Of a DNA stretch of 43,763 bases, positions 13,199 through 37,044 are shown piece by piece (position 1 is the first letter of the stretch; each line of letters opens with the position of its first letter). The notes below the pieces were generated by a model. The model ran no database searches, had not been told where the DNA came from, and was given only the letters and a program-made list of their open reading frames with translations. Position numbers and translations under genes: made by a program. The stretch covers positions 1 to 43,763 of the forward strand of contig JAAYBL010000158.1 in the NCBI GenBank assembly GCA_012718945.1, written 5' to 3'. The stretch is from Bacteroidales bacterium (GTDB lineage Bacteria; Bacteroidota; Bacteroidia; Bacteroidales; UBA1402).

Positions 13199-14452
13199 TT
13201 AATCATTCATCCAACCGAGCTTTTTAAAGCCCCAGAAGAGGAGGGAGAGCACAATGCCAACAACGGCTGCGAAGGCCATCCCTTTCAACTGTACAGAACC
13301 TAACATGATGCTGGCACCGCTGATACCAATCACGAAGGTGATGGCGCCAAGTACCATGTTGCTGTTTTTGCTGAAATCGACTTTTTGTTCAACGAAGATA
13401 CGCAATCCCTGGACAGCAATCACACCGTACAACAAAATTGTGATACCACCCATGACGGCCACGGGAATGCTGGAGATGGCTGCGGCAATTTTGCCGATAC
13501 AGGAGAAAATCATGGCCAAGATAGCAGCCCCTCTGATGATCCAAACGGAATAGACTCTGGTGATGGCCATAACGCCGATGTTTTCACCATAGGTGGTATT
13601 GGGGGGTGAACCGGTAAAACCTGAAATGACATTGCTAATACCATCACCTAACAGTGAGCGGTGCAACCCTGGTTTGTCCATGAGGTCTTCTCCTGTCACC
13701 TTACTGGTTACGATCAAGTGGCTGATGTGTTCGGCAAGCACGACCAGGCAGGCTGGTGCGATGATCAGTATGGATGTGGTATCGTACACGGGTGCCTGGA
13801 ATTTGGGCAGGGCAAACCAGGCTGCATTACTGATGGCGGCAGTGTCTACCATACCCATGCACAAGGCCAGGATATAACCAGCTACGACAGCTATCAGGAT
13901 AGGGATGACTTGTAGGAAGCCCTTGAACACGACGGTTCCGATGATGCCAACGGCCAAGGTGAACATGGATACCAGCAGGACATTCTTGTCAGTGGCTTCT
14001 CCAGCTAGTAATCCGGCCTGGTCTGCGGCTACAGGAGCTAATTCCAGTCCGATGATGGCAACGACGGCACCCATGACGGCTGGCGGCATGACGACATCAA
14101 TCCAACGGATGCCCCACTTGTAGACCACCCAGGATATGAGGATGAAAAAGAGTCCGAAAAAGATAAAGCCGGCCTGTGCATGGGCAAAGCCTCCGTGCTG
14201 GGTCATGATGAGCATGACGGGGGCGATGAACGCAAAGCTGGACCCCAGGTAGGCGGGGATTCCACCTTTGGTTACCCAACTGTAGATTAATGTTCCGATA
14301 CCGTTCATCAACAGGGCGATGGCCGGATTGATACCCAGTAATATGGGCACCAGGATGGTGGCACCGAACATGGCAGTAAGGTGCTGGAGACTAAGAGGTA
14401 GGCTTTGTAAAAGTGGTAGCTTTTCGTGAATGCCAACGGTTCGTCGTTTCAT
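13199..14452 (-). CDS. uraA: uracil permease (NCS2 nucleobase:H+ symporter)
   Basis: 417-aa integral membrane protein of the NCS2 (nucleobase/ascorbate transporter) family with about 14 hydrophobic segments. It opens with KLPLLQSLPLSLQHLTAMFGATILVPILLG, the UraA signature. TM3 carries GGIPAYLGSSFAFIAP; the later NTTYGENIGVMAITRVYS is the characteristic conserved stretch containing the substrate-contacting glutamate. The family member UraA imports uracil with a proton. The start codon overlaps the rmuC stop by 4 bp (ATGA), so it is read from the rmuC transcript and is probably translationally coupled. A hairpin terminator follows directly. Purine specificity cannot be fully excluded, but the sequence is of the UraA type. 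Confidence 0.92.
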   Translation of the reverse strand: MKRRTVGIHEKLPLLQSLPLSLQHLTAMFGATILVPILLGINPAIALLMNGIGTLIYSWVTKGGIPAYLGSSFAFIAPVMLIMTQHGGFAHAQAGFIFFGLFFILISWVVYKWGIRWIDVVMPPAVMGAVVAIIGLELAPVAADQAGLLAGEATDKNVLLVSMFTLAVGIIGTVVFKGFLQVIPILIAVVAGYILALCMGMVDTAAISNAAWFALPKFQAPVYDTTSILIIAPACLVVLAEHISHLIVTSKVTGEDLMDKPGLHRSLLGDGISNVISGFTGSPPNTTYGENIGVMAITRVYSVWIIRGAAILAMIFSCIGKIAAAISSIPVAVMGGITILLYGVIAVQGLRIFVEQKVDFSKNSNMVLGAITFVIGISGASIMLGSVQLKGMAFAAVVGIVLSLLFWGFKKLGWMND

Positions 14453-15849
14453 GAGTCGATTTGATTAGTGTTAGAGTTAGTTTGGTGAGGATCTATAAAG
14501 CGATTTGGTATGGTTTTGGAGGGTGACAAGCCCAGCTTCCTGAGTTGTTCCACGCGTCTGACCAGGTTGCCCGGTCCGGCCGTCAGTTGGCCATAGGCAT
14601 CGTTGTATACCTTTTGAGCGGCGTTAATCTCCTGGCCTATCTTTTCGAAATTGGTGGCAAAGCCCACGAACTTTTCATAAAGCAGGGTCGCTTGTTTGAC
14701 GATGGTTTGGATGTTGCGCACCTGGAATTCGCGTTTCCATAGATCCATGGCCATGCGCAAGGCGGCAATCAAGTTGGTGGGACTCATCATGACCACCTTT
14801 TTGTGGTAGGCGTATTCCCAAAGAGTAGGGTCGGCTTGAAGTGCCAGGTTGTAGGAAGGTTCGTTGGGTATAAACATCATGACAAACTCCAGGGCTTTGA
14901 CATCGTAACCGGCGTAATCCTTTTTGTTCAATTCGTCGATGTGGTTTTTGACTGAACGCAGGTGCTCCTTGCGGAAGGCCTCTTTTTCCTTGGGGTCGTC
15001 TGTGGCTACGTATTGGCTATAGGCTGTAAGGGAAACCTTGGCATCGATGATGACGTCACGCTCTCCTGGATAATGAACCACGACATCGGGGCGCATGGTT
15101 TTGCCCGTGGCTTGATTGGAGGTCAGGTCTCCTTCGTCTTCCCTGAGTGAGGTTTGAATCACGTATTCCACCCCTTCTCTCAAACCGGAGGCCTCCAGGA
15201 TGTTTTCCAAAATCATCTCGCCCCAGTCGCCCTGCATTTTGTTGTCGCCTTTCAAGGCTTGGGTCAGGTTGTTTGCTTCATCACTGATGCGACGGTTTAG
15301 CTCCATCAGGTTGGCGATTTCCTTGGTCAGTGAGAATCGCTCCCGCGCTTCTTTGTCATACGCCTCAGTCACTTTCTCCTTGAATTCTTTCAAGTTGTTG
15401 GTCAAGGGGTTCAACAGGGTGTCCAGGCGTTCGCCGCTGAGTTCGTTGAACCGTTTGGTCTTTTCATCGAAAATGCGGTTGGCAACGTTTTGGAATTCCA
15501 GGGTGAATTTTTCACGCAAGGCATCAAATTCCTTGTGCTGGGAGGCTAATTTATCTTGCAGGTTTCTGTTTTCGGCTTCTAAAAACAAGGCTCGACGGGT
15601 GGCGTCATTGAGTTGTGCCTGGTTGTTGTTGAAGGTTTGTTTGAGGGTGCTGAATTCTTGTTTGAGATTTTCAAGAAGGGCTTTGGTGTGAGCCGATTCT
15701 GATTCAGCGGTCGAAAGGAGTTTGGTTAATTCGAGCAAGGTGGCGTTGCTTCGGTTTTTTTGCCTGTCTTTACCCAATAACCATCCCAGAGCGCCTCCCA
15801 ATAGGCCTCCTGCGAGAAAGCCTAGGATGATGAAAAGTGTGTCTGGCAT
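14449..15849 (-). CDS. rmuC: RmuC-family DNA recombination protein
   Basis: 466-aa RmuC family protein. An N-terminal membrane helix (residues 3-25, GFLAGGLLGGALGWLLG) is followed by a long coiled coil (about 30-170, rich in E, K, L and Q), then the nuclease-like RmuC domain (about 190-430) with GDWGEMILENILEASGLREG, PDVVVHYPGERDVIIDAKVSL and FVMMFIPNEPSYN. The PD...DAK pattern resembles a PD-(D/E)xK nuclease core. RmuC limits inversion at short repeats in E. coli. I chose ATG 15849 (MPDTLF), which puts the membrane helix at the terminus; the longer frame to 15906 is upstream of the predicted transcription start. It heads the two-gene rmuC-uraA operon and has the best promoter match in this window. 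Confidence 0.92.
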   Translation of the reverse strand: MPDTLFIILGFLAGGLLGGALGWLLGKDRQKNRSNATLLELTKLLSTAESESAHTKALLENLKQEFSTLKQTFNNNQAQLNDATRRALFLEAENRNLQDKLASQHKEFDALREKFTLEFQNVANRIFDEKTKRFNELSGERLDTLLNPLTNNLKEFKEKVTEAYDKEARERFSLTKEIANLMELNRRISDEANNLTQALKGDNKMQGDWGEMILENILEASGLREGVEYVIQTSLREDEGDLTSNQATGKTMRPDVVVHYPGERDVIIDAKVSLTAYSQYVATDDPKEKEAFRKEHLRSVKNHIDELNKKDYAGYDVKALEFVMMFIPNEPSYNLALQADPTLWEYAYHKKVVMMSPTNLIAALRMAMDLWKREFQVRNIQTIVKQATLLYEKFVGFATNFEKIGQEINAAQKVYNDAYGQLTAGPGNLVRRVEQLRKLGLSPSKTIPNRFIDPHQTNSNTNQIDS

Positions 15850-15871
15850 GGTGTAGATTCGTTTATCGTGG

Positions 15872-15902
15872 CAAAAGTACATTTTTTTGAATTCACAACC
15901 AA
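15872..15902 (-). promoter_or_regulatory. rmuC-uraA promoter (-33 TTG and -7 TACTTTTG)
   Basis: On the minus strand TTG (15902-15900), 20 bp, then TACTTTTG (15879-15872), which fits the Bacteroidota sigma-ABfr consensus in both elements and spacing. Transcription would start near 15866, 17 nt before the chosen rmuC ATG. Confidence 0.7.
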
Positions 15903-16927
15903 CCATGTTGACGATACCATGCCAGTGTTTTTATCCATCCTGTACGTAGATCGGTGGGGGGGGTGTAACCCACCGCTTCTTGCAGTGCGGTGATGTTGCA
16001 GGACCAGTTTCTGGCGGCCATAATTCGGTACTTATCCTGGTTGATTAACACCGACTTGCCACTGAGGCGCCCCAGGCCTTCGCCCAAGGCGGCGACTACC
16101 CTGGCCAGGCTGAGGGGTATCCTGACTTTTAGTACCCGATGTTTGTGAAACAAGTCCTGTAAAAGGTCTACATAATCCCTGTCTTCGACGATGGCAGGGT
16201 GGGCGACCAACCAGGTTTTGCCAGAAACGGCTGATGTCAATGCCAACCAACAAAGTTCAACCAGGTCTTCAACGTATAGAAAGCTTAGCCGTTGAGGGGT
16301 CAGGCCCAACGTTGGAGCCAAACCTGACTTCACCAGCTTGGCCATGGCCAGGTAATCTTTGTCGCCGGGTCCGTAAATGCCGGTGGGGCGCAGGATGAGC
16401 CAAGGTAGTCCTTTGATGGTCTTCAAACCTTCCTCGGCGGCGAGTTTGCTCCGCCCGTAGGCTGACACTGGCTGCGGTGGACTGTTGAGCGTGATGGGGT
16501 TGAGGGGATCGTCGTCACCGGGGCCGATAGCTTCCAGGCTGCTCATGAACAGGAACTTGTCTGGCGCTTTGCCGGTGTCCATCAAGGCCTGGGCCAGGTT
16601 GAGGGTGTAGGTGGTGTTGACCAATGCGTAGTCAGATGGATTGACACTGCGGGTGAGACCGGCGCAATGAATCACGTACTGCCAGCGTGGCGCCTGGGCG
16701 ATTTGTTCCTGCAGGTGCTCTGGGTGCTCATAGTCCAGGTGAATAAGATGCAGGTTGGATGGCTTTGTTGACGAATCCGATCGGTTATTGTCTGGCAGGC
16801 TGCTGCGGCGGGTGCCTGCCCACACTGTCCAACCCTGCTCTAGAGCGCTTTCTACCAAACGGCCTCCTACAAACCCTCCGGCTCCCGTAATCAAGATGGT
16901 TGGCGTGGTTGGTTGCTGAGTAGGCAT
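15893..16927 (-). CDS. NAD-dependent epimerase/dehydratase (extended SDR)
   Basis: 344-aa extended short-chain dehydrogenase. The Rossmann motif TGAGGFVGG is at residues 14-22 and the catalytic YxxxK is Y157/K161 (AYGRSKLAAEEG), preceded by FMSSLEAIGPG, which carries the active-site serine. RPTGIYGPGD follows at about residue 180, typical of nucleotide-sugar epimerases and 3-beta-HSD-like proteins. Start ATG 16927 (MPTQQPTT) gives the normal distance to the glycine motif; the longer open frame to 17041 crosses the predicted promoter and is rejected. It is read divergently from the GH43-like gene and ends 43 bp before the rmuC ATG. The substrate is unknown; an NDP-sugar or a lipid-linked hydroxyketone are both possible. 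Confidence 0.85.
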   Translation of the reverse strand: MPTQQPTTPTILITGAGGFVGGRLVESALEQGWTVWAGTRRSSLPDNNRSDSSTKPSNLHLIHLDYEHPEHLQEQIAQAPRWQYVIHCAGLTRSVNPSDYALVNTTYTLNLAQALMDTGKAPDKFLFMSSLEAIGPGDDDPLNPITLNSPPQPVSAYGRSKLAAEEGLKTIKGLPWLILRPTGIYGPGDKDYLAMAKLVKSGLAPTLGLTPQRLSFLYVEDLVELCWLALTSAVSGKTWLVAHPAIVEDRDYVDLLQDLFHKHRVLKVRIPLSLARVVAALGEGLGRLSGKSVLINQDKYRIMAARNWSCNITALQEAVGYTPPTDLRTGWIKTLAWYRQHGWL

Positions 16928-16953
16928 GGTAGAGGAACTTATGGACTTGGATC

Positions 16954-16961
16954 CAAAAGTA
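16954..16961 (-). promoter_or_regulatory. -7-like promoter element for the epimerase gene
   Basis: Minus-strand TACTTTTG, 27 bp before ATG 16927. No -33 TTG at proper distance. It sits back to back with the element of the divergent GH43-like gene. Confidence 0.5.
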
Positions 16962-16996
16962 CACAAAAAGCCCCTAAAAATTAGGTGGCAAATCGC

Positions 16997-17004
16997 TATA
17001 TTTG
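16997..17004 (+). promoter_or_regulatory. -7-like promoter element for the GH43-like gene
   Basis: TATATTTG, predicted start of transcription near 17011. This makes ATG 17036 the more natural start than ATG 17012, which would leave no leader. Confidence 0.5.
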
Positions 17005-17035
17005 TGCTGTTATGCAAAGACAAGTCACATCCAAA

Positions 17036-18061
17036 ATGCACCGTTGTCTGCTCGTATTGGCAGGCTGCCTGGTGTTTACGCTGCCCATTATCGCTCAGTC
17101 AGTTGAGGTTGGCAAACAGTCAAAAACGACAATCAAAAAACAACAAGCCAAAAAGACCAAACAAGGTTGGTTGGCGCCTAAACCCCTGTTCGTGGACCCC
17201 ATCTATGACGGAGCCGCCGATCCTGTGGTCATTTGGAACCGAACAGCCAAACGTTGGTACATGCTTTATACCAACCGCAGGGCCACCGCTCAAGGCTTGG
17301 AAGGTGTTGCCTGGGTTCACGGCACCCGCATTGGCGTGGCTGTCTCAGACGATGGGGCCAATTGGACCTATTTGGATACCTGTGACATCGATTATCGACC
17401 TACGGAAGGGTATACTCACTGGGCGCCCGATGTGGTGTACCACAAAGGGCTGTATCATATGTACCTGACCTATGTGCCTGGCGTGTTCACCGATTGGCGC
17501 CACCCCAGAGATATTATCCATCTTACCAGTGACGATTTGCTGCACTGGCGGTATGAATCAACCCTCAAGTTGGCTTCCGATCGGGTTATTGATGCCTCTG
17601 TCTTTCGTTTGCCTGATGGTAACTGGCGTATGTATTACAACAACGAAAGGGCTGGCAAATCCATGTATTATGCGGACAGTCCAGATCTCTACAACTGGAC
17701 AGACAGCGGACGCAGGGTTGTGGGCGACAAAGGTGGCGAAGGGGCCAAGGTGTTTCGCTGGCAAGGAACGAACTGGATGCTGGTGGACAATTGGGACGGC
17801 CTCGGCGTATACCGCTCGGACGACCTGGTGAACTGGGTCCGTCAGCCGGAAAACATTCTCAGGGAGCCGGGTAAGGGGCAGGATGATGGGGCTAAGGGCC
17901 AACACTGCGACGTTGTGGTCAGTGGTAAGCGGGCCTTTGTGTATTATTTCGTGCATCAGACACCCAAGATCACCAGGTTGCAGGTGGCTGAGTTGAAACT
18001 GGTAGACGGCAAGATCGTTTGTGACAGGGACAGCCCCTGCTACGTTAAACTCAAACGGTAA
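17036..18061 (+). CDS. secreted GH43-like five-bladed beta-propeller glycosidase
   Basis: 341-aa exported protein: signal peptide at residues 1-21 (ending LPIIAQS), a basic linker rich in K and Q (about 24-43), then a five-bladed propeller. Blade repeats are visible as paired motifs: ADPVVIWNRTAKRWYMLYT, HWAPDVVYHKGLYHMYLTY, IDASVFRLPDGNWRMYYN, EGAKVFRWQGTNWMLV and VVVSGKRAFVYYF. Candidate catalytic residues by analogy with clan GH-F are D62, D186 and E235, with D132 also conserved. The fold class is clear, but GH43, GH117 and related propeller families are hard to separate by eye and the substrate is unknown; arabinose- or galactose-containing glycans are typical. The umuD gene starts only 8 bp after its stop, an odd neighbour for a glycosidase. 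An in-frame ATG lies at 17012. Confidence 0.72.
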   Translation: MHRCLLVLAGCLVFTLPIIAQSVEVGKQSKTTIKKQQAKKTKQGWLAPKPLFVDPIYDGAADPVVIWNRTAKRWYMLYTNRRATAQGLEGVAWVHGTRIGVAVSDDGANWTYLDTCDIDYRPTEGYTHWAPDVVYHKGLYHMYLTYVPGVFTDWRHPRDIIHLTSDDLLHWRYESTLKLASDRVIDASVFRLPDGNWRMYYNNERAGKSMYYADSPDLYNWTDSGRRVVGDKGGEGAKVFRWQGTNWMLVDNWDGLGVYRSDDLVNWVRQPENILREPGKGQDDGAKGQHCDVVVSGKRAFVYYFVHQTPKITRLQVAELKLVDGKIVCDRDSPCYVKLKR

Positions 18062-18069
18062 GTTTGTAG

Positions 18070-18543
18070 ATGAATAAACGGATAAAGTTGCCTGCGCTTG
18101 ACCTCTTCAAGGCTGATGTGGAGAGCGAACAGGCGTTGCCTATGGTGGAAGGGGGCATTGCTGCCGGCTTCCCCAGTCCGGCGCAGGATTACATCGACCT
18201 CAGTCTGGACTTGAACAAAACCTTGATTGAGAACCCCTCCAGTACGTTTTTTGGACGAGTGAGGGGTACTTCTATGGTGGATGCGGGTATTGAAGATGGT
18301 GATTTGCTCGTCATCGATAAATCCCTGGAACCCAAAGATGGTGATACCGTGGTCTGTTTTCTTGATGGAGAATTTACCCTCAAGTATATTCAGATTGAGA
18401 AGGAGGTCGTGTACCTTGTGCCAGCCAATCCCGCCTTTAAACCTATACGGGTCACAGAAGCCAACCATTTTTGCATTTGGGGGGTGGTGACCTATTCCAT
18501 CAAGGATCATCACCATCATCGTAGACGTAGTGCTATCAGGTAA
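18070..18543 (+). CDS. umuD: UmuD-like S24 peptidase, translesion polymerase subunit
   Basis: 157-aa S24 family protein. The self-cleavage site is AAG (A32-G33) in IAAGFPSPAQDYIDLSLDLN, which aligns with the CGFPSPA site of E. coli UmuD; the catalytic Ser/Lys dyad is S68 (RGTSMVDAG) and K105 (EFTLKYI). After RecA-stimulated cleavage the product UmuD' partners UmuC as Pol V. It lacks a LexA-type DNA-binding domain. The C-terminus has a natural run of four histidines followed by three arginines (KDHHHHRRR), an unusual tail. It begins 8 bp after the GH43-like stop and ends 12 bp before the SRAP gene; umuC is 2.1 kb downstream on the same strand. I see no clear SOS box. Confidence 0.92.
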   Translation: MNKRIKLPALDLFKADVESEQALPMVEGGIAAGFPSPAQDYIDLSLDLNKTLIENPSSTFFGRVRGTSMVDAGIEDGDLLVIDKSLEPKDGDTVVCFLDGEFTLKYIQIEKEVVYLVPANPAFKPIRVTEANHFCIWGVVTYSIKDHHHHRRRSAIR

Positions 18544-18555
18544 TCATACAGTCTT

Positions 18556-19182
18556 ATGTGCTTCTTTTCCCGCCTTACCCTGTCGGTTTCTGAACTGAAA
18601 CGTCATTACCAGGCCGATCCCTTGGAGATGGATGATTTTGAGCCGACCGAACGGTTCAACGGATTTGCTCATCCGCTTACGCCGGTGATTGCCAACGACA
18701 AACCCGACAAGATTCGTCTCTTTGGTTGGGGACTGATGCCGGCCTGGGCTTCAGACGAATCCTTCAGGAAGAATACCCTGAACGCCCGATTGGAAACCCT
18801 GTACGAAAAGCCCTCGTTTAAACCCTATGTGGCCAATCGGTGTTTGGTGCTGGCCAATGGCTTTTATGAATGGCAATGGTTGGACCCAAAGGGAAAGCAA
18901 AAGCAGGGGTACCTGATTACATTGCCCGATGAACAACCCTTTGCTTTCGCCGGCTTGTGGAATGTATGGAAACAACCGGGTACGGGTTTGTTGGTGCCGA
19001 CCTATACCATTATCACCAGACCGGCCAATGAACTCATGGCTACCATCCACAACTCCAAGCAACGAATGCCCTACATTCTCAAACCGGGCGATGAAAAAGC
19101 CTGGTTGGAAGGAGCCCCACCTAAGGAACCGGCTGAAATACTCGTGGCTACGCCGGTGAATGGGCCCTCATCCCTTGGATAG
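18556..19182 (+). CDS. yedK: SOS response-associated peptidase (SRAP), YedK/HMCES family
   Basis: 208-aa SRAP protein that shields abasic sites in single-stranded DNA by forming a thiazolidine crosslink through its N-terminal cysteine. All key residues are present: C2 after Met removal (MCFFSRL), N76 (NARLET), E105 (GFYEW) and H165 (IHNSKQRMP). RLFGWGLMPAW and the C-terminal PVN are family-typical. It follows umuD by 12 bp, so both are probably read from one message, which fits an SOS role alongside UmuD and UmuC. Its final 35 bp overlap the 3' end of the inverted heme-oxygenase-like gene. Confidence 0.95.
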   Translation: MCFFSRLTLSVSELKRHYQADPLEMDDFEPTERFNGFAHPLTPVIANDKPDKIRLFGWGLMPAWASDESFRKNTLNARLETLYEKPSFKPYVANRCLVLANGFYEWQWLDPKGKQKQGYLITLPDEQPFAFAGLWNVWKQPGTGLLVPTYTIITRPANELMATIHNSKQRMPYILKPGDEKAWLEGAPPKEPAEILVATPVNGPSSLG

Positions 19183-20485
19183 GCGCTGACTTTCTATGTG
19201 ATTCGAGCATCTCATACGTGGCTTCTACCGCGGCTATCCACGTAGGAGGAAAGAGGGATTCGTCGGTCAGCCATGCCTTCATGGCGCTTCTCGATACTTG
19301 TTGTCCAAGAGTAGCATCGGCCAATGAGCTGGCTATCAGGCTGCCCATATGCAAGGCTAATTGCAGGAGATGCCTGTTGGTCACGTTGTTTTTTTGCAAT
19401 TGGGTTTCAAACATTCGATCAGCCTCGATGAAGGTGCTCTGGTCGAAAATGCCCAATCGGTCACTTTTCAAGATTTTGGCAATCTCGAGAAGGTGTTTGT
19501 ACCGGGGTTTGTTGTGTGGTGAACGTTGGCCCAACTCGTGGTGGAGGGTGTGAAGCTGCATTTCGATGATGATAGAGGGCATGCCTCTGATGGAGAGAAA
19601 ATTGGATAGCCAGCGTGCTTGATTAGCGGCTATCTCCAGGGGAATTTCACTGAGCCCGATTAGCCAGGCAGCGTCACTGATGGCAAAACGCCGTCCCCGC
19701 TCTCCAAAACGTTCTTCAAAAAAAGGGTAATGGTTCCAGCAAGCCAGGCCTGCCTTTATGGCGGCCTCGATTTCGTGGGGGTCGGTGGTGATGGGTAAAT
19801 GACCCGCTTCGGGGTTCAAGGATGTAATGTGAATGCCCATGCTGGCCTCGTCTATGGGGTAAAGTGCTCCATAAAAGGCGGTCAATCCTTTAAAGGCTTC
19901 TTCTGCCCCTTCGATAACGGCTTCCTTGGCTGCATCGTCGGGTAGTTTACTATCGAGTAACTGGAGGTAATTCATCCAGAAGTCCCTGAAATTGTAGCCA
20001 AAAGAAGAAAAATAACGGATGCCGGTTTCTCCGCTCAAGCCCAGGGAGATGGTGACGTGTCTCTTCAGGATGCTTCCTACGTTGAGGGCACCGTCCAATG
20101 CATAGAGATAGCCCAGTAGGGTGTAGGGCCTACTGACACTGTGTACTAGAATGGTATCTGCCATGCCCAAGGCCTGACCGACGGCTGGCAGGATGTCGGG
20201 GGTGTGGCAACCATCCAATGCTTCAAGGTCGGCCAGCAACAGCGGTAGCTTACGCAAGTAGTTGTTCAGGTAGGGTTTAAGGATGAGTCCATCCTGACCC
20301 AGCAGTTGTTGTTCCAATGCTCCATATACGATGGCCATTCCTTTGAGATACCCAACGTAGGCTATCTTGGGTAGATCGTTTTGGAGTAGGGCTTTGATGT
20401 ACGGTAAGTTTTGCGTTTCCCGATGAATATCGCTTATTCGTTGTTTTATTTCGGCACGAAATCCTGTTGCTTGTGTGTTTTCCAT
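19148..20485 (-). CDS. heme-oxygenase-like (BphO type) two-domain protein
   Basis: 445-aa protein. Residues about 10-215 look like a bacteriophytochrome-type heme oxygenase: a candidate proximal heme ligand H21 in RISDIHRETQNLPYIKALL, then LGYLYALDGALNVGSILKRH (about 124-143) and GIRYFSSFGYNFRDFW (about 155-170), which parallel the LYVLEGS..GG..RH and FF..YG segments of BphO and PigA. Residues about 216-445 form a second helical domain I do not recognise, with NHYPFFEERFGERGRRFAISD, PSIIIEMQLHTLHHELGQ and a conserved-looking RHLLQLALHMGSLIASSLAD. Single-domain heme oxygenases are about 200 aa, so this is twice normal size. Start ATG 20485 (MENTQATGF); a longer frame to 20566 overlaps the -7 element. 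It is inverted inside the umuD-SRAP/umuC interval. Heme breakdown and iron release are inferred only. Confidence 0.65.
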   Translation of the reverse strand: MENTQATGFRAEIKQRISDIHRETQNLPYIKALLQNDLPKIAYVGYLKGMAIVYGALEQQLLGQDGLILKPYLNNYLRKLPLLLADLEALDGCHTPDILPAVGQALGMADTILVHSVSRPYTLLGYLYALDGALNVGSILKRHVTISLGLSGETGIRYFSSFGYNFRDFWMNYLQLLDSKLPDDAAKEAVIEGAEEAFKGLTAFYGALYPIDEASMGIHITSLNPEAGHLPITTDPHEIEAAIKAGLACWNHYPFFEERFGERGRRFAISDAAWLIGLSEIPLEIAANQARWLSNFLSIRGMPSIIIEMQLHTLHHELGQRSPHNKPRYKHLLEIAKILKSDRLGIFDQSTFIEADRMFETQLQKNNVTNRHLLQLALHMGSLIASSLADATLGQQVSRSAMKAWLTDESLFPPTWIAAVEATYEMLESHRKSAPIQGMRAHSPA

Positions 20486-20563
20486 GCTTGTCAGTTTGTG
20501 TTGAGACTGCAGATGGAGTGGTAATCTGCTTGAAATACAGGAGAAAAGGAGTTGTTGCGCCTT

Positions 20564-20571
20564 CAAATGTA
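20564..20571 (-). promoter_or_regulatory. -7-like promoter element for the heme-oxygenase-like gene
   Basis: Minus-strand TACATTTG; a TTTG (20599-20596) lies 24 bp upstream, a little far for -33. Transcription near 20558 favours ATG 20485 as start. Confidence 0.45.
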
Positions 20572-20640
20572 CGAATTAATCCGATGGTTTGGAAACAAAA
20601 GAGACACCCTTTTTTTTATGGTGAAAAGTATTTATTGGTG

Positions 20641-20648
20641 TATCTTTG
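20641..20648 (+). promoter_or_regulatory. -7-like promoter element for umuC
   Basis: TATCTTTG, 30 bp before ATG 20679. It gives umuC its own promoter, separate from umuD. The 70 bp between this and the divergent element show no palindrome I would call a LexA box. Confidence 0.5.
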
Positions 20649-20678
20649 AAGGATGCCCCTCTGAATCCATTTGCTGCC

Positions 20679-21944
20679 ATGTTTGCCCTGGTTGACTGCA
20701 ATAATTTTTACGCTTCCTGTGAACGGGTGTTCAACCCTTCGCTGCAAAACGTGCCCATCGTCGTGCTCTCCAACAACGATGGCTGTGTGGTGGCTCGATC
20801 GCAGGAGGCCAAGAATCTGGGTATACCCATGGGGGTGCCGGCTTTTCAGATCAAGGATATGATTGAAGAAAAGGGGGTGGCTGTTTTTTCTTCCAACTAC
20901 TCACTGTACGGGGATATGTCTAATCGGGTAATGAAGACCCTGGCCGGTTTTGCTGCCCAATTGGAGGTTTATTCCATTGATGAGGCTTTCCTCGATTTCA
21001 GGGGGTATGATTATACTGATCTGTCCGTTTATGGACGCACCATCGTCAATACAGTGCGTAAGAATACGGGGATACCGGTGAGTATGGGGGTGGCTCCAAC
21101 AAAGACCCTTGCGAAAGTGGCCAACAAATACGCCAAGAAGTTCAAGGGCTACAAGGGTGTTTGCATCATTGATACGGAAGAAAAGCGGATCAAGGCACTT
21201 AAGGGTATGGCTGTCGGGGATGTCTGGGGTATCGGTCGCCGATATACAGCTTTCCTGCAAAACCAGGGCATACTTACGGCCTATGATTTTTCCCAGTGCT
21301 CAAGGAGTTGGGTTCGCCGCCATATGACAGTGGTTGGGGAGCGGATGTGGGCAGAATTGAATGGGGAGCCCTGTCTGGAGTTGGAACACACTGCGGCCGC
21401 CAAGCAGCAGATTTGCACCTCACGTAGTTTTGGTAACCGACTCACCCGGTTTGAGGATGTGTTTGAGGCTGTGTCGAACTTTGCAGCTTCCTGCGCGGCT
21501 AAACTGCGGAAGCAGCACTCCTGCGCTACTGGAATGCTGGTCTTTGTGATGACCAATCCCTTTAGTGAGCGTGATGCTCAGTATGTGAACAGTCGTCAGT
21601 TGAAACTGCCTTTGCCGACGGCTTGCACGACCGAGCTTATTGAATATGCCAAGTTGCTGCTCCAGGATCTTTTCAGAGAAGGCTACCGGTATAAGAAGGC
21701 CGGTGTGATCATCACCGACATTGTGCCCGACACTCCTCTACAGAGCGATCTGTTCGATACAGTGGACAGGGGCAGGCAGCGACGTCTGCTGGAGGCGGTA
21801 GACAAACTCAACGACAGCATGGGGACTTATAAAGTGAGGGTGGCCGCTCAGGGTTATGGCAAGACCTGGAAACTCAAAAACGAGCGGCTGTCGCCTTGTT
21901 ACACCACCAAACTGGATGATTTGATCACAATCAAGACGACGTAG
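20679..21944 (+). CDS. umuC: UmuC-like Y-family DNA polymerase (Pol V catalytic subunit)
   Basis: 421-aa Y-family translesion polymerase. It starts with the universal [18 protein letters not shown], with metal ligands D6, D101 and E102 ([10 protein letters not shown]). [22 protein letters not shown] is the palm/fingers motif, [10 protein letters not shown] the HhH thumb, and the little-finger domain follows ([16 protein letters not shown]). Near residue 358 QSDLF fits the beta-clamp-binding QxxLF pattern. ATG 20679 is chosen because family members begin here; a TTG at 20646 lies inside the promoter element. The UmuD partner is encoded 2.1 kb upstream with SRAP and an inverted gene between. 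Error-prone bypass of lesions after SOS induction is the expected role. Confidence 0.95.
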
Positions 21945-35669: not shown

Positions 35670-36013
35670 AAGAAGCGTTGCACGAACGATTGGTGTGGGA
35701 GGGGCGTACCGTTGAAAAGATGGTCGTGTTGTATTGCAAATACCACCACCAGGAAAGGACTTTTACCTCAGAATATGGCCAAAAGCCTCTCTGTGCCGAC
35801 TGTCATGCCTTACTGACTTATGCCCTGAAACGCATCGAGGCCTGTCGTTACGGTGCCAACAAACCGACTTGTGCCAACTGTACGACCCATTGTTACAAAC
35901 CAGTCATGCGTGAATCCATCCGTCAGGTGATGCGTTATGCTGGCCCTCGCATGCTTTTGTATCACCCTTTGGCCGCACTCAAACACACCTGGTTATCGTG
36001 GACGCGCAAATAA
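35666..36013 (+). CDS. ygbA: YgbA-family (nitrous-oxide-stimulated promoter) cysteine-rich protein
   Basis: 115-aa small cytosolic protein of the YgbA family. Cysteines and histidines are arranged as metal-ligand-like pairs: C24 and H27 (YCKYHH), C43/C46 (CADC), C60 and C69/C72/C76 (CRYGANKPTCANCTTHCY), then the family's C-terminal RESIRQVMRYAGPRMLLYHP. E. coli ygbA is induced by nitric oxide through NsrR and aids recovery from nitrosative stress; the biochemical role is unclear. Its ATG overlaps the symporter stop (ATGA), so it is translated from the sugar-cluster message. Its presence inside a deoxysugar operon is unexpected. Confidence 0.88.
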   Translation: MKEALHERLVWEGRTVEKMVVLYCKYHHQERTFTSEYGQKPLCADCHALLTYALKRIEACRYGANKPTCANCTTHCYKPVMRESIRQVMRYAGPRMLLYHPLAALKHTWLSWTRK

Positions 36014-36027
36014 TTCACCCTACAAAT

Positions 36028-37044
36028 ATGAAGGCCTGGAAAAAGGCTGTATTGCAGTCGCCCAAACGATTGGCGTTGCCCATCATGACACATCCTGGTA
36101 TCGAGCATCTCGGTTATACCGTACTGGATGCAGTGCAGAGGGCTGATGTACAGGCTGAAGCGATGATTTGGCTGAATAATCACTACGACACTGTGGCGGC
36201 AACGGCTATGATGGATTTAACAGTGGAAGCCGAAGCGTTTGGTTGCAGTATTGAATTTCAGTTACACGATATGCCTCACATCAAGGGGCGTTTATTGGAC
36301 GGACCCTCGGCCGTGGAGGCCCTTGTATTACCATCCTTGACAGCAGGGCGTCTGCCCGTTTACCTGGAGGCTAACGACAGGGCGGTAAAAGCATTGAGTC
36401 CCAAGCCCGTTTTTGGTGGGATGATAGGACCTTTCTCTCTGGCAGGACGTCTATACGACCTGAGTGAGTTGATGATGGCCTGTTATATGGATCCGACGAC
36501 GGTACACTGTCTGTTGGATCGTTGCACCACCTTCCTCCTGGAATATGCCAGGGCGATGAAAAATCAGGGTTGCAGTGGTGTTGTCATGGCCGAACCGGCT
36601 GCCGGTTTGTTGTCGAACGAAGACTGTCTGGTGTTTTCATCAACCTATGTGCGGAAGGTGGTCGAAGCGTTACAAGATGACCATTTTCTTGTTGTGCTCC
36701 ACAATTGCGGTAATACAGGCCAATGTACGGAAGCTATGTTGGATACTGGGACTGGAGCTTTCCATTTTGGAAACGCCATCAATATGGTTGACACCCTGGA
36801 ATTTTGTCCGGATGATGTCCTGGTTATGGGCAACCTCGATCCGGTGGGTGTTTTCAAGCAGGGTAGTCCTGCTTCCGTCAAGGAAGCCACCCGGACCCTG
36901 CTGAATCAAACGGCGGCTTACCCTCATTTTATTCTGTCATCAGGTTGCGACATGCCGCCCCATGTGCCTTTGGCCAACCTTGATGCTTTTTTTGAGAGTC
37001 TGGATACGTTTAACCGTGACAAAAATGTTGAAGAACATGTTTGA
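36028..37044 (+). CDS. uroporphyrinogen-decarboxylase-like methyltransferase (MtaA/CmuA group)
   Basis: 338-aa TIM-barrel protein of the UroD superfamily. Zinc-ligand positions of corrinoid-dependent methyltransferases of the MtaA/CmuA type are present: H225 and C227 (LHNCGNTG) and C307 (SSGCDMPPHVP). FGGMIGPFSLAGRLYD, MAEPAAGLLS and MGNLDPVGVFKQG are group motifs. True heme-pathway UroD lacks this His-Cys-Cys set. Such proteins move methyl groups between a corrinoid protein and a thiol. No corrinoid protein is in view, so the partner is unknown. Start ATG 36028 (MKAWKKAV) is chosen; a GTG at 35998 would overlap ygbA by 16 bp. The gene is followed by the fucI promoter, which begins inside its last codons. 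Confidence 0.82.
   Translation: MKAWKKAVLQSPKRLALPIMTHPGIEHLGYTVLDAVQRADVQAEAMIWLNNHYDTVAATAMMDLTVEAEAFGCSIEFQLHDMPHIKGRLLDGPSAVEALVLPSLTAGRLPVYLEANDRAVKALSPKPVFGGMIGPFSLAGRLYDLSELMMACYMDPTTVHCLLDRCTTFLLEYARAMKNQGCSGVVMAEPAAGLLSNEDCLVFSSTYVRKVVEALQDDHFLVVLHNCGNTGQCTEAMLDTGTGAFHFGNAINMVDTLEFCPDDVLVMGNLDPVGVFKQGSPASVKEATRTLLNQTAAYPHFILSSGCDMPPHVPLANLDAFFESLDTFNRDKNVEEHV

What the first reader, a model, noticed from the sequence alone, without database searches (positions are those of the whole stretch)
19148..20485. Two-domain BphO-like heme oxygenase with an unassigned C-terminal half
Residues about 10-215 show heme-oxygenase motifs, but the protein continues for some 230 residues of an unrecognised helical domain with conserved-looking His-rich stretches (HTLHHELGQ). 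It could be a heme-iron sensor, a fused partner enzyme, or a new member of the heme-oxygenase-like fold with other chemistry.
Basis: partly seen in the sequence, partly recalled or inferred. Interest (0 to 1): 0.55.

Follow-up and report, generated by a model that had tools for sequence, protein, structure and literature searches.

The report
Pigment-making enzyme fused to light-sensor globin
A bacterial gene joins an enzyme of the kind that turns heme into a green pigment (biliverdin) to a globin of the kind that holds such pigments, and comparison with relatives suggests that the protein makes its own pigment for a vitamin-B12-based light-sensing system.

Summary
The ORF is real: minus strand, 20485-19148, 445 aa. 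Residues 9-199 are a heme oxygenase (HO; PF01126, 65.6 bits). The 'unassigned' half is not an enzyme. It is a phycobiliprotein-like globin of the photoglobin/BBAG (bilin-binding globin) lineage: AlphaFold pLDDT 91.4, best structural matches phycobilisome subunits and smURFP (Z 12.7, 12.2), profile match to photoglobins 91.9% (shuffles at most 0.9%). Its invariant Asp271 and Trp292 align with positions that I infer to be the biliverdin-contact residues of photocobilin SasPcob. HTLHHELGQ is not conserved. The same HO-globin fusion occurs in 35 of 51 globin-bearing loci across many phyla. In 28 of 31 assemblies with the fusion a CarH-type B12-binding protein (Wx9EH) is encoded, beside the fusion in 15; its closest solved relatives are photocobilins. 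This genome holds that protein too, overlapping a histidine kinase gene on another contig, and no phytochrome. Best reading: a split photocobilin whose globin carries its own biliverdin-making enzyme. Bilin binding, catalysis and partner contact are inferred. Against: two odd residues in this copy's HO distal helix; B12-kinase pairs also occur without the fusion. I found no description of the fusion in print; the photoglobin paper was not readable here.

The parts
19148..20485 (-). HO-globin gene, 445 aa, ATG start at 20485, stop 19150-19148
   Evidence: full-length relatives start near the same Met
19847..20470 (-). N-terminal heme-oxygenase domain (residues 6-213)
   Evidence: PF01126 65.6 bits, residues 9-199; VIA Z 24.0, rmsd 2.2, 204 aligned to rat HO-1 1dvg_A
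20423..20425 (-). His21, aligned with the proximal heme ligand of heme oxygenases
   Evidence: His in 30 of 33 rows (2 gaps, 1 Arg); aligned; the role of the ligand is recalled
20075..20092 (-). distal-helix stretch G132-A-L-N-V-G137, which departs from the family (G-T/S-T-L-G-N)
   Evidence: Val136 in 1 of 33 rows (Gly in 32); Ala133 in 3 of 33
19460..19789 (-). phycobiliprotein-like globin core (residues 233-342)
   Evidence: AlphaFold pLDDT 91.4; VIA matches 9wg7_S2 Z 12.7, 7uqa_A Z 12.2 over model residues 16-129; hhalign 91.9% to photoglobins
19673..19702 (-). signature E262-R-G-R-R-F-A-I-S-D271; Asp271 aligns with the Asp of the photoglobin C-x-E-D motif and, by inference, with SasPcob Asp270
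   Evidence: note that this signature was part of the search pattern
19610..19612 (-). Trp292, aligns with photoglobin Trp (by inference SasPcob Trp296)
   Evidence: 45 of 45 in A3, not part of the search pattern; aligned
19577..19588 (-). R300-G-M-P303, at the place of photoglobin RGVP
   Evidence: Gly and Pro 45 of 45, Arg 42 of 45; not part of the search pattern
19187..19450 (-). C-terminal helical extension (residues 346-433), no fold assigned
   Evidence: helices; conserved Asp390 and Trp405 (45 of 45); not covered by most matches
20486..20645 (.). 160-bp divergent gap between the HO-globin start and the UmuC-family gene

Best explanation
The gene encodes a self-charging bilin protein. 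The N-terminal BphO-like HO domain opens heme to biliverdin (inferred). The C-terminal phycobiliprotein-like globin holds the biliverdin without a Cys link, with Asp271 at the pyrrole rings and Trp292 near ring D and the corrin edge (inferred by alignment to photocobilin SasPcob). The globin docks on a separate CarH-type adenosylcobalamin domain (CBD) encoded elsewhere in the genome (contig C266), so that HO-globin plus B12 protein form a split photocobilin, and the histidine kinase whose gene overlaps that of the CBD supplies the output (inferred from gene linkage in relatives). Shown here: both domain assignments, conservation, and the genomic linkage. Not shown: bilin, heme or B12 binding, catalysis, contacts, light response. 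My probabilities: globin of the bilin-binding lineage 0.85; binds biliverdin 0.65; works with the B12-kinase pair 0.5.
For: HO half. Globin half: AlphaFold pLDDT 91.4, pTM 0.87; best VIA matches are phycobilisome subunit 9wg7_S2 (Z 12.7, rmsd 2.3, 109 aligned), smURFP 7uqa_A (Z 12.2, rmsd 3.0, 114), 7eyd_V9 (Z 10.8), smURFP mutant with biliverdin 6fzn_A (Z 10.5), above heme globins at Z up to 7.7. Profile-profile match to 8 photoglobin domains 91.9%, E 6.8e-7; 40 column shuffles at most 0.9%, reversed 0.1%. Linkage: strong CBD (over 150 bits) in the same held stretch for 17 of 35 HO-globin loci, all on the same strand; 14 of the 17 other genomes searched hold it elsewhere, so 28 of 31 distinct assemblies; 7 of 59 relatives without HO-globin have it. 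Of 58 immediate neighbour genes, 13 are histidine kinases, 11 B12-binding, 11 carry receivers. CBD partners: best solved relatives are photocobilins 8j2x, 8j2w (E 1.4e-41, 1.5e-41) before MetH (about 1e-17) and CarH (1e-13); Wx9EH in 17 of 17. In this genome the CBD and kinase genes overlap on C266; the kinase's first 160 residues match the kinase between CBD and HO-globin in L082 at E 1.6e-19.
Against: P0001 itself has Val at the Gly143 position (only one of 33) and Ala at the Asp140 position, so its HO domain may be impaired. In this genome the HO-globin gene is not beside the CBD-kinase pair. CBD-kinase pairs exist without HO-globin in relatives, including G002 of the same genus. Three HO-globin assemblies (L031, L032, L071) lack a strong CBD, as do all 7 actinobacterial genomes searched that hold the globin with another N-terminus. 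Foldseek alone gave no globin-half match at E<=0.001, and Z near 12-13 is the stated grey zone for helical folds. The photoglobin profile is shallow (Neff 2.8). The invariance of Asp271 is partly built in by the search pattern. BBAG-2 proteins studied by Rockwell et al. bound biliverdin but were photoinert (PMC10151467, section 9). No bilin reductase and no phytochrome were found in this genome.
Confidence: 0.6

Rival explanations
1. Biliverdin store or carrier without photosensing: the HO domain breaks down heme for iron or CO, and the globin binds the product to stop inhibition or toxicity. The B12-kinase linkage would be incidental.
For: BBAG-2 holoproteins were photoinert with biliverdin and the functions of BBAGs are stated to be not yet known (PMC10151467). 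18 of 35 HO-globin loci have no strong CBD in the held stretch.
Against: 28 of 31 assemblies hold the photocobilin-type CBD; histidine kinases and receivers dominate the immediate neighbours. 5 of 16 globin-only loci sit with the CBD and lack HO in the same gene.
Confidence: 0.2
2. In this particular genome the HO domain has lost catalysis and serves as a heme- or bilin-binding scaffold, so the globin takes up biliverdin from elsewhere or is a relic.
For: Val136 and Ala133 in the distal helix; long branch of P0001 (1.3).
Against: Frame intact, His21 kept, HO profile 65.6 bits over a cut-off of 23, 317 of 445 residues with pLDDT of 90 or more. With no second HO in the genome as held, a bilin-using globin would have no internal source.
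Confidence: 0.2
3. Heme-based sensor: the C-terminal globin binds heme and the HO domain senses heme or iron.
For: Heme globins appear in Foldseek (prob up to 0.57) and VIA (Z up to 7.7).
Against: Phycobiliproteins and smURFP score clearly higher (Z 10.5-12.7). The His positions of HTLHHELGQ are not conserved, and no His is listed among the invariant columns of the globin core.
Confidence: 0.05

Closest known systems
BBAG-2 / Myxococcales bilin-binding globins (Rockwell, Martin, Lagarias 2023, PMC10151467; sections 7, 8, 9, 12 read)
   Same: Phycobiliprotein-like globin linked to a B12-binding protein and to HO in the genome; biliverdin is the bilin bound there; conserved R-G-M-x motif
   Different: There the HO is a separate gene; they report a Cys-bearing RGMC motif, here RGMP; the bilin reductase that goes with BBAG-2 is absent here. 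No BBAG-2 sequence could be obtained for a tree.
Photocobilins / photoglobins (Zhang et al. 2024, PMC10979010, passages; Schneider et al. 2022, recalled, not held)
   Same: Bilin-binding globin without Cys, working with a CarH-type AdoCbl domain; the CBD partner here is closest to photocobilin CBDs among solved structures
   Different: CBD and globin are one chain there; here the globin is fused to HO and the CBD is a separate gene
BphO (bacteriophytochrome-linked heme oxygenase; e.g. Deinococcus deserti, L126)
   Same: HO profile, proximal His, YVLEGS-type distal motif in the family
   Different: Stand-alone enzyme serving a phytochrome; here fused to a globin, with no phytochrome over cut-off in the genome
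CarH
   Same: Wx9EH and ExHx2G motifs in the partner CBD (motifs as given in PMC9304148 and PMC8156234, passages)
   Different: CarH is a DNA-binding repressor; the partner here has no DNA-binding domain match in Pfam and its gene overlaps a histidine kinase gene

Membership tests
Heme oxygenase (PF01126, BphO-like) | Pfam profile over the curated cut-off | tested here: met
   65.6 bits against 23
Heme oxygenase (PF01126, BphO-like) | HO fold | tested here: met
   Z 24.0 to 1dvg_A, rmsd 2.2, 204 aligned
Heme oxygenase (PF01126, BphO-like) | Proximal His | tested here: met
   His21; 30 of 33 rows, 2 gaps, 1 Arg
Heme oxygenase (PF01126, BphO-like) | Distal helix with the two glycines (Gly139, Gly143 of human HO-1, numbering recalled) | tested here: inconclusive
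   Gly132 kept; Val136 in place of the second Gly in P0001, Gly in 32 of 33; Gly137 follows and could compensate
Heme oxygenase (PF01126, BphO-like) | Conversion of heme to biliverdin | not testable with these tools
   needs an enzyme assay
Photoglobin / BBAG bilin-binding globin lineage | Phycobiliprotein-like globin fold | tested here: met
   Z is in the stated grey zone, carried by the profile match
Photoglobin / BBAG bilin-binding globin lineage | Sequence-profile relationship | tested here: met
   hhalign 91.9% to 8 photoglobins, 85.1% to 4 of them, 31.2% to the other 4 alone
Photoglobin / BBAG bilin-binding globin lineage | Asp contacting the bilin pyrroles | tested here: met
   Asp271 aligned; also kept in 3 of 3 Myxococcota globins found without the pattern
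Photoglobin / BBAG bilin-binding globin lineage | Bilin binding | not testable with these tools
   needs spectra
BBAG-2 in the narrow sense | RGMC motif with Cys | tested here: not met
   RGMP; Pro in 45 of 45
BBAG-2 in the narrow sense | Pre-2 bilin reductase (FDBR) in the genome | tested here: not met
   no PF05996 match at E<=1 in G000
Photocobilin | B12-binding domain and globin in one chain | tested here: not met
   no B12-binding domain in P0001; the CBD is a separate gene on C266
CarH-type light-sensing CBD (the partner on C266) | Wx9EH plus ExHx2G B12 motif | tested here: met

The most novel reading that the evidence does not exclude
A split, self-charging and oxygen-gated photoreceptor: the HO domain makes biliverdin from heme and O2 and passes it inside the same chain to the globin, which docks on AdoCbl-CBD and sets the kinase. 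The system would then report light only when oxygen and heme are present, a photo-oxidative-stress AND gate, in mostly heterotrophic and partly anaerobic lineages, and the fusion would be a living link between bilin making and bilin holding in the lineage that gave rise to phycobiliproteins.
Probability: 0.25. Interest if true: 0.85.

Novelty: new variant of a known kind. Interest (0 to 1): 0.6.

Why it matters
Bilin-binding globins are proposed as the source of phycobiliproteins, and Rockwell et al. state that the functions of extant BBAGs are not yet known (PMC10151467). A fusion of the pigment-making enzyme to the pigment-holding globin ties the two in one chain in many phyla, predicts the chromophore (biliverdin), a partner (AdoCbl-CBD) and an output (histidine kinase), and so makes the function of this globin lineage directly testable. 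A protein that charges itself with biliverdin beside a B12 light switch would also interest optogenetics.

Tried and rejected
Rejected: C half as a second enzyme or second HO domain (no HO match in residues 216-445). Phytochrome partner: PHY 12.1 bits against a cut-off of 27, with a stop inside. Bilin reductase in the genome: none. Foreign base composition: gene GC 0.507, window 0.506. Sequence relatives of the whole protein on plasmids: none; in viral contigs: none; pattern in viral contigs: none. Pfam scan of all 45 C-domains found no shared family. The profile of 45 C-domains finds no PDB chain better than E 1.5, so the photocobilin chains are not hit directly by HMMER; only profile-profile comparison reaches photoglobins.

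Led nowhere: obtaining BBAG-2 with RGMC. 12 of 377 Myxococcota genomes have a bilin reductase match at E<=1e-5, but none of the 18 stretches around these matches (up to about 6 kb each side, some cut by contig ends) holds a globin by the 45-row profile. The C-domain search of Myxococcota found 4 of 282 genomes. Schneider et al. 2022 (photoglobin) is not held, so I cannot say whether it shows an HO-globin fusion; searches for such a fusion in print.

Limits of counts: the globin set was found by the pattern ERGxxFxxSDxAWL, so invariance of those letters is by construction. Of 55 stretches, 52 encode the pattern in frame (3 do not: L062, L067, L081) and 51 of these 52 are globins (L079 is not). 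A1 uses 32 of the 35 HO-globin loci (L037, L059, L074 are cut off and left out). A3 uses 44 of 51 globins (left out: L029, L037, L047, L050, L059, L069, L074). The globin-only class of 16 includes L029, L044 and L046, which run into an end of the held stretch. The tree left out L069. One search covered 26 genomes; L059 was not given separately because its assembly prefix is that of L041 and L055, and L034 was not given. Assemblies were told apart by accession prefix. In the hhalign controls the HO blocks from column 250 on contain the C-domain itself and were disregarded. The control compares different taxa, so the contrast 28 of 31 against 7 of 59 is confounded by phylogeny. The 58 neighbours were mechanically chosen ORFs, 1 or 2 per locus.

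Recalled, not from a call: human HO-1 residue numbers and roles; the search motif, which is present in P0001 but was chosen partly from memory of the family; general HO chemistry.

Full report
What is there. Window 20485..19148 on the minus strand is an intact ORF of 445 codons; the plus strand is closed. An upstream TTG start at 20566 exists, but relatives begin near the ATG at 20485. The gene converges on and overlaps the SRAP gene by 35 bp, and diverges from a UmuC-family gene across 160 bp (families). Its GC is that of the window (0.507 and 0.506).

N-terminal half. PF01126 matches residues 9-199 with 65.6 bits, the only HO match in this genome. AlphaFold with 33 rows gives pLDDT 89.6, pTM 0.85, and residues 6-213 superpose on heme oxygenases (1dvg_A Z 24.0, rmsd 2.2, 204 aligned; Foldseek best 5kzl E 5.1e-5). 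His21 sits at the proximal ligand position (30 of 33 rows, 2 gaps, 1 Arg). The family's distal motif, YVLEG(S/T)TLGN, is like YVLEGSTLGGQ in a Deinococcus deserti HO whose gene directly precedes a kinase gene with a bacteriophytochrome-like start (that kinase was judged by eye, not scanned). P0001 departs: Ala133 (3 of 33 rows) and Val136 (1 of 33; Gly in 32).

C-terminal half: finding its family. No Pfam, NCBIfam or PDB sequence match. Of the genomes searched around its own place in the tree, none but its own holds the C half (60, 395 and 295 genomes). A pattern for ERGxxFxxSDxAWL in one genome per species gave 55 stretches, of which 51 encode real relatives: 35 have HO plus this domain, 16 the domain alone or with another N-terminus. 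Hosts include Geobacteraceae and other Thermodesulfobacteriota, Holophagaceae, Verrucomicrobia, Methylococcaceae, Competibacteraceae, Nitrospiraceae, Omnitrophica and Actinomycetota. P0001 pairs with a Desulfosoma MAG protein (support 97/89) on a long branch.

C-terminal half: what it is. The domain alone with 45 rows models at pLDDT 91.4, pTM 0.87. Foldseek finds nothing at E<=0.001, though hemoglobins appear at probability up to 0.57. The VIA second look puts bilin proteins first: phycobilisome subunit 9wg7_S2 Z 12.7 (rmsd 2.3, 109 aligned), smURFP 7uqa_A Z 12.2 (3.0, 114), 7eyd_V9 Z 10.8 (2.7, 108), a near-infrared designed protein 8j98 Z 10.7, smURFP mutant with biliverdin 6fzn_A Z 10.5, then a non-globin at 8.2 and globins at 7.7 and below. 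For helical models Z under about 13 can be a common arrangement, so fold alone is not proof. Profile-profile comparison adds the needed weight: 31.2% against four Streptomyces photocobilin-type globins, 85.1% against four Azospirillum and Skermanella photoglobins, 91.9% (E 6.8e-7) against all eight, with 40 column shuffles at most 0.9% and the reversed alignment 0.1%. In these alignments Asp271 meets the Asp of the photoglobin C-x-E-D or T-x-E-D motif and Trp292 its Trp. In SasPcob (8j2w) that Asp and Trp are 26 residues apart, as are Asp270 and Trp296, which the paper names as biliverdin contacts (PMC10979010, passages); the identification is by this spacing and offset, hence inferred. The Cys position is Ala or Thr in 42 of 45, so any bilin would be non-covalent there, as in photocobilins. 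Asp271 invariance is in part built in by the search; Trp292 and R-G-x-P are not, and 3 of 3 Myxococcota globins found by profile keep Asp, Trp and RG(M/I)P. Residues 346-433 form further conserved helices without an assigned fold.

Neighbours. In relatives the gene sits with a small B12-binding protein and histidine kinases. Counting strong CBD matches (over 150 bits), 17 of 35 HO-globin loci have one in the held stretch, all on the same strand; 5 of 16 globin-only loci also. Of 17 genomes of the remaining HO-globin loci, 14 hold a strong CBD elsewhere (174.7 bits or more), while L031, L032 and L071 do not; nor do L042, L083 or the 7 actinobacterial genomes. By assembly that is 28 of 31. In 60 relatives of G000 a strong CBD occurs in 8 including G000, that is 7 of the 59 without HO-globin; two of these (L107, L108) have a kinase close to that of G000 beside it (293 and 316 bits). 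So the B12-kinase pair is wider than the fusion. Among 58 immediate neighbours 13 are HisKA kinases, 11 B12-binding, 11 receivers. The CBDs carry Wx9EH in 17 of 17 and ExHx2(G/A), the motifs that contact the Ado group and give the lower axial ligand in CarH (PMC9304148 and PMC8156234, passages). Their closest solved relatives are the photocobilins 8j2x and 8j2w (E 1.4e-41, 1.5e-41) and 8j2y (9.4e-29), ahead of methionine synthase (about 1e-17) and CarH (1e-13).

This genome. G000 encodes the CBD (249 aa) and a HisKA/HATPase kinase (391 aa) as overlapping genes on contig C266. The kinase's first 160 residues, outside the kinase core, match those of the kinase lying between CBD and HO-globin in L082 (E 1.6e-19) and, more weakly, of L054, L057 and L048. 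No phytochrome or bilin reductase was found; the genome is estimated 89.8% complete, so absences are soft.

How it most likely works. Heme is opened to biliverdin by the HO domain and held by the globin of the same chain; the loaded globin docks on the AdoCbl-CBD and sets the kinase. This is by analogy with photocobilins, where biliverdin and AdoCbl lie edge to edge and light on AdoCbl breaks the dimer (PMC10979010, passages). Each functional step is inferred. The two distal-helix changes in P0001 leave open that this copy is a poor HO.

What is known and new. BBAG-2 globins with B12 proteins and HO as separate genes, and CBD-globin photocobilins, are known (PMC10151467 sections 7, 8, 9, 12; PMC10979010 passages). 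I found no HO-globin fusion in the main text of PMC10151467 by term search ('fused' occurs 0 times and the 2 'fusion' hits are an intein construct and globin-B12) or by searches; the photoglobin paper and supplements were not readable. I file it as a new variant of the bilin-binding globin lineage, not as BBAG-2 in the narrow sense and not as a photocobilin.

Noticed in passing
window 14449-21944: The HO-globin gene lies among DNA-repair genes: RmuC, S24/UmuD-like, SRAP and UmuC-family. If the system senses light, repair genes would be plausible targets; in G002 of the same genus the UmuC gene has other neighbours.
   Followed up: partly
L107, L108, L109, L110: Bacteroidota-side relatives encode the CarH-type B12 protein followed by a histidine kinase without any HO-globin found in the genome: possible stand-alone B12 light switches.
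   Followed up: partly
L029, L033, L034, L045, L050, L061, L068: Actinobacterial proteins join the same globin to a different N-terminal stretch of about 100 residues with no Pfam match in the one scanned (L033) and no strong B12 partner in the 7 actinobacterial genomes searched.
   Followed up: no
L057 (6159-7298 minus), L058 (1968-3035 plus), L064 (4898-5983 minus): Several B12-binding partners carry an extra N-terminal stretch of some 120-190 residues that could be another globin (by eye).
   Followed up: no
L112 4254-6445: A Myxococcota copy has its HO half split over two open frames, so it may be broken by a frameshift or a sequencing error.
   Followed up: no
window 35998-37041: URO-D family protein (188.7 bits); may be a tetrapyrrole enzyme or a corrinoid methyltransferase.
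   Followed up: no
window 19450-19187 (residues 346-433): Conserved helical extension behind the globin core with invariant Asp390 and Trp405 and no fold assigned.
   Followed up: no
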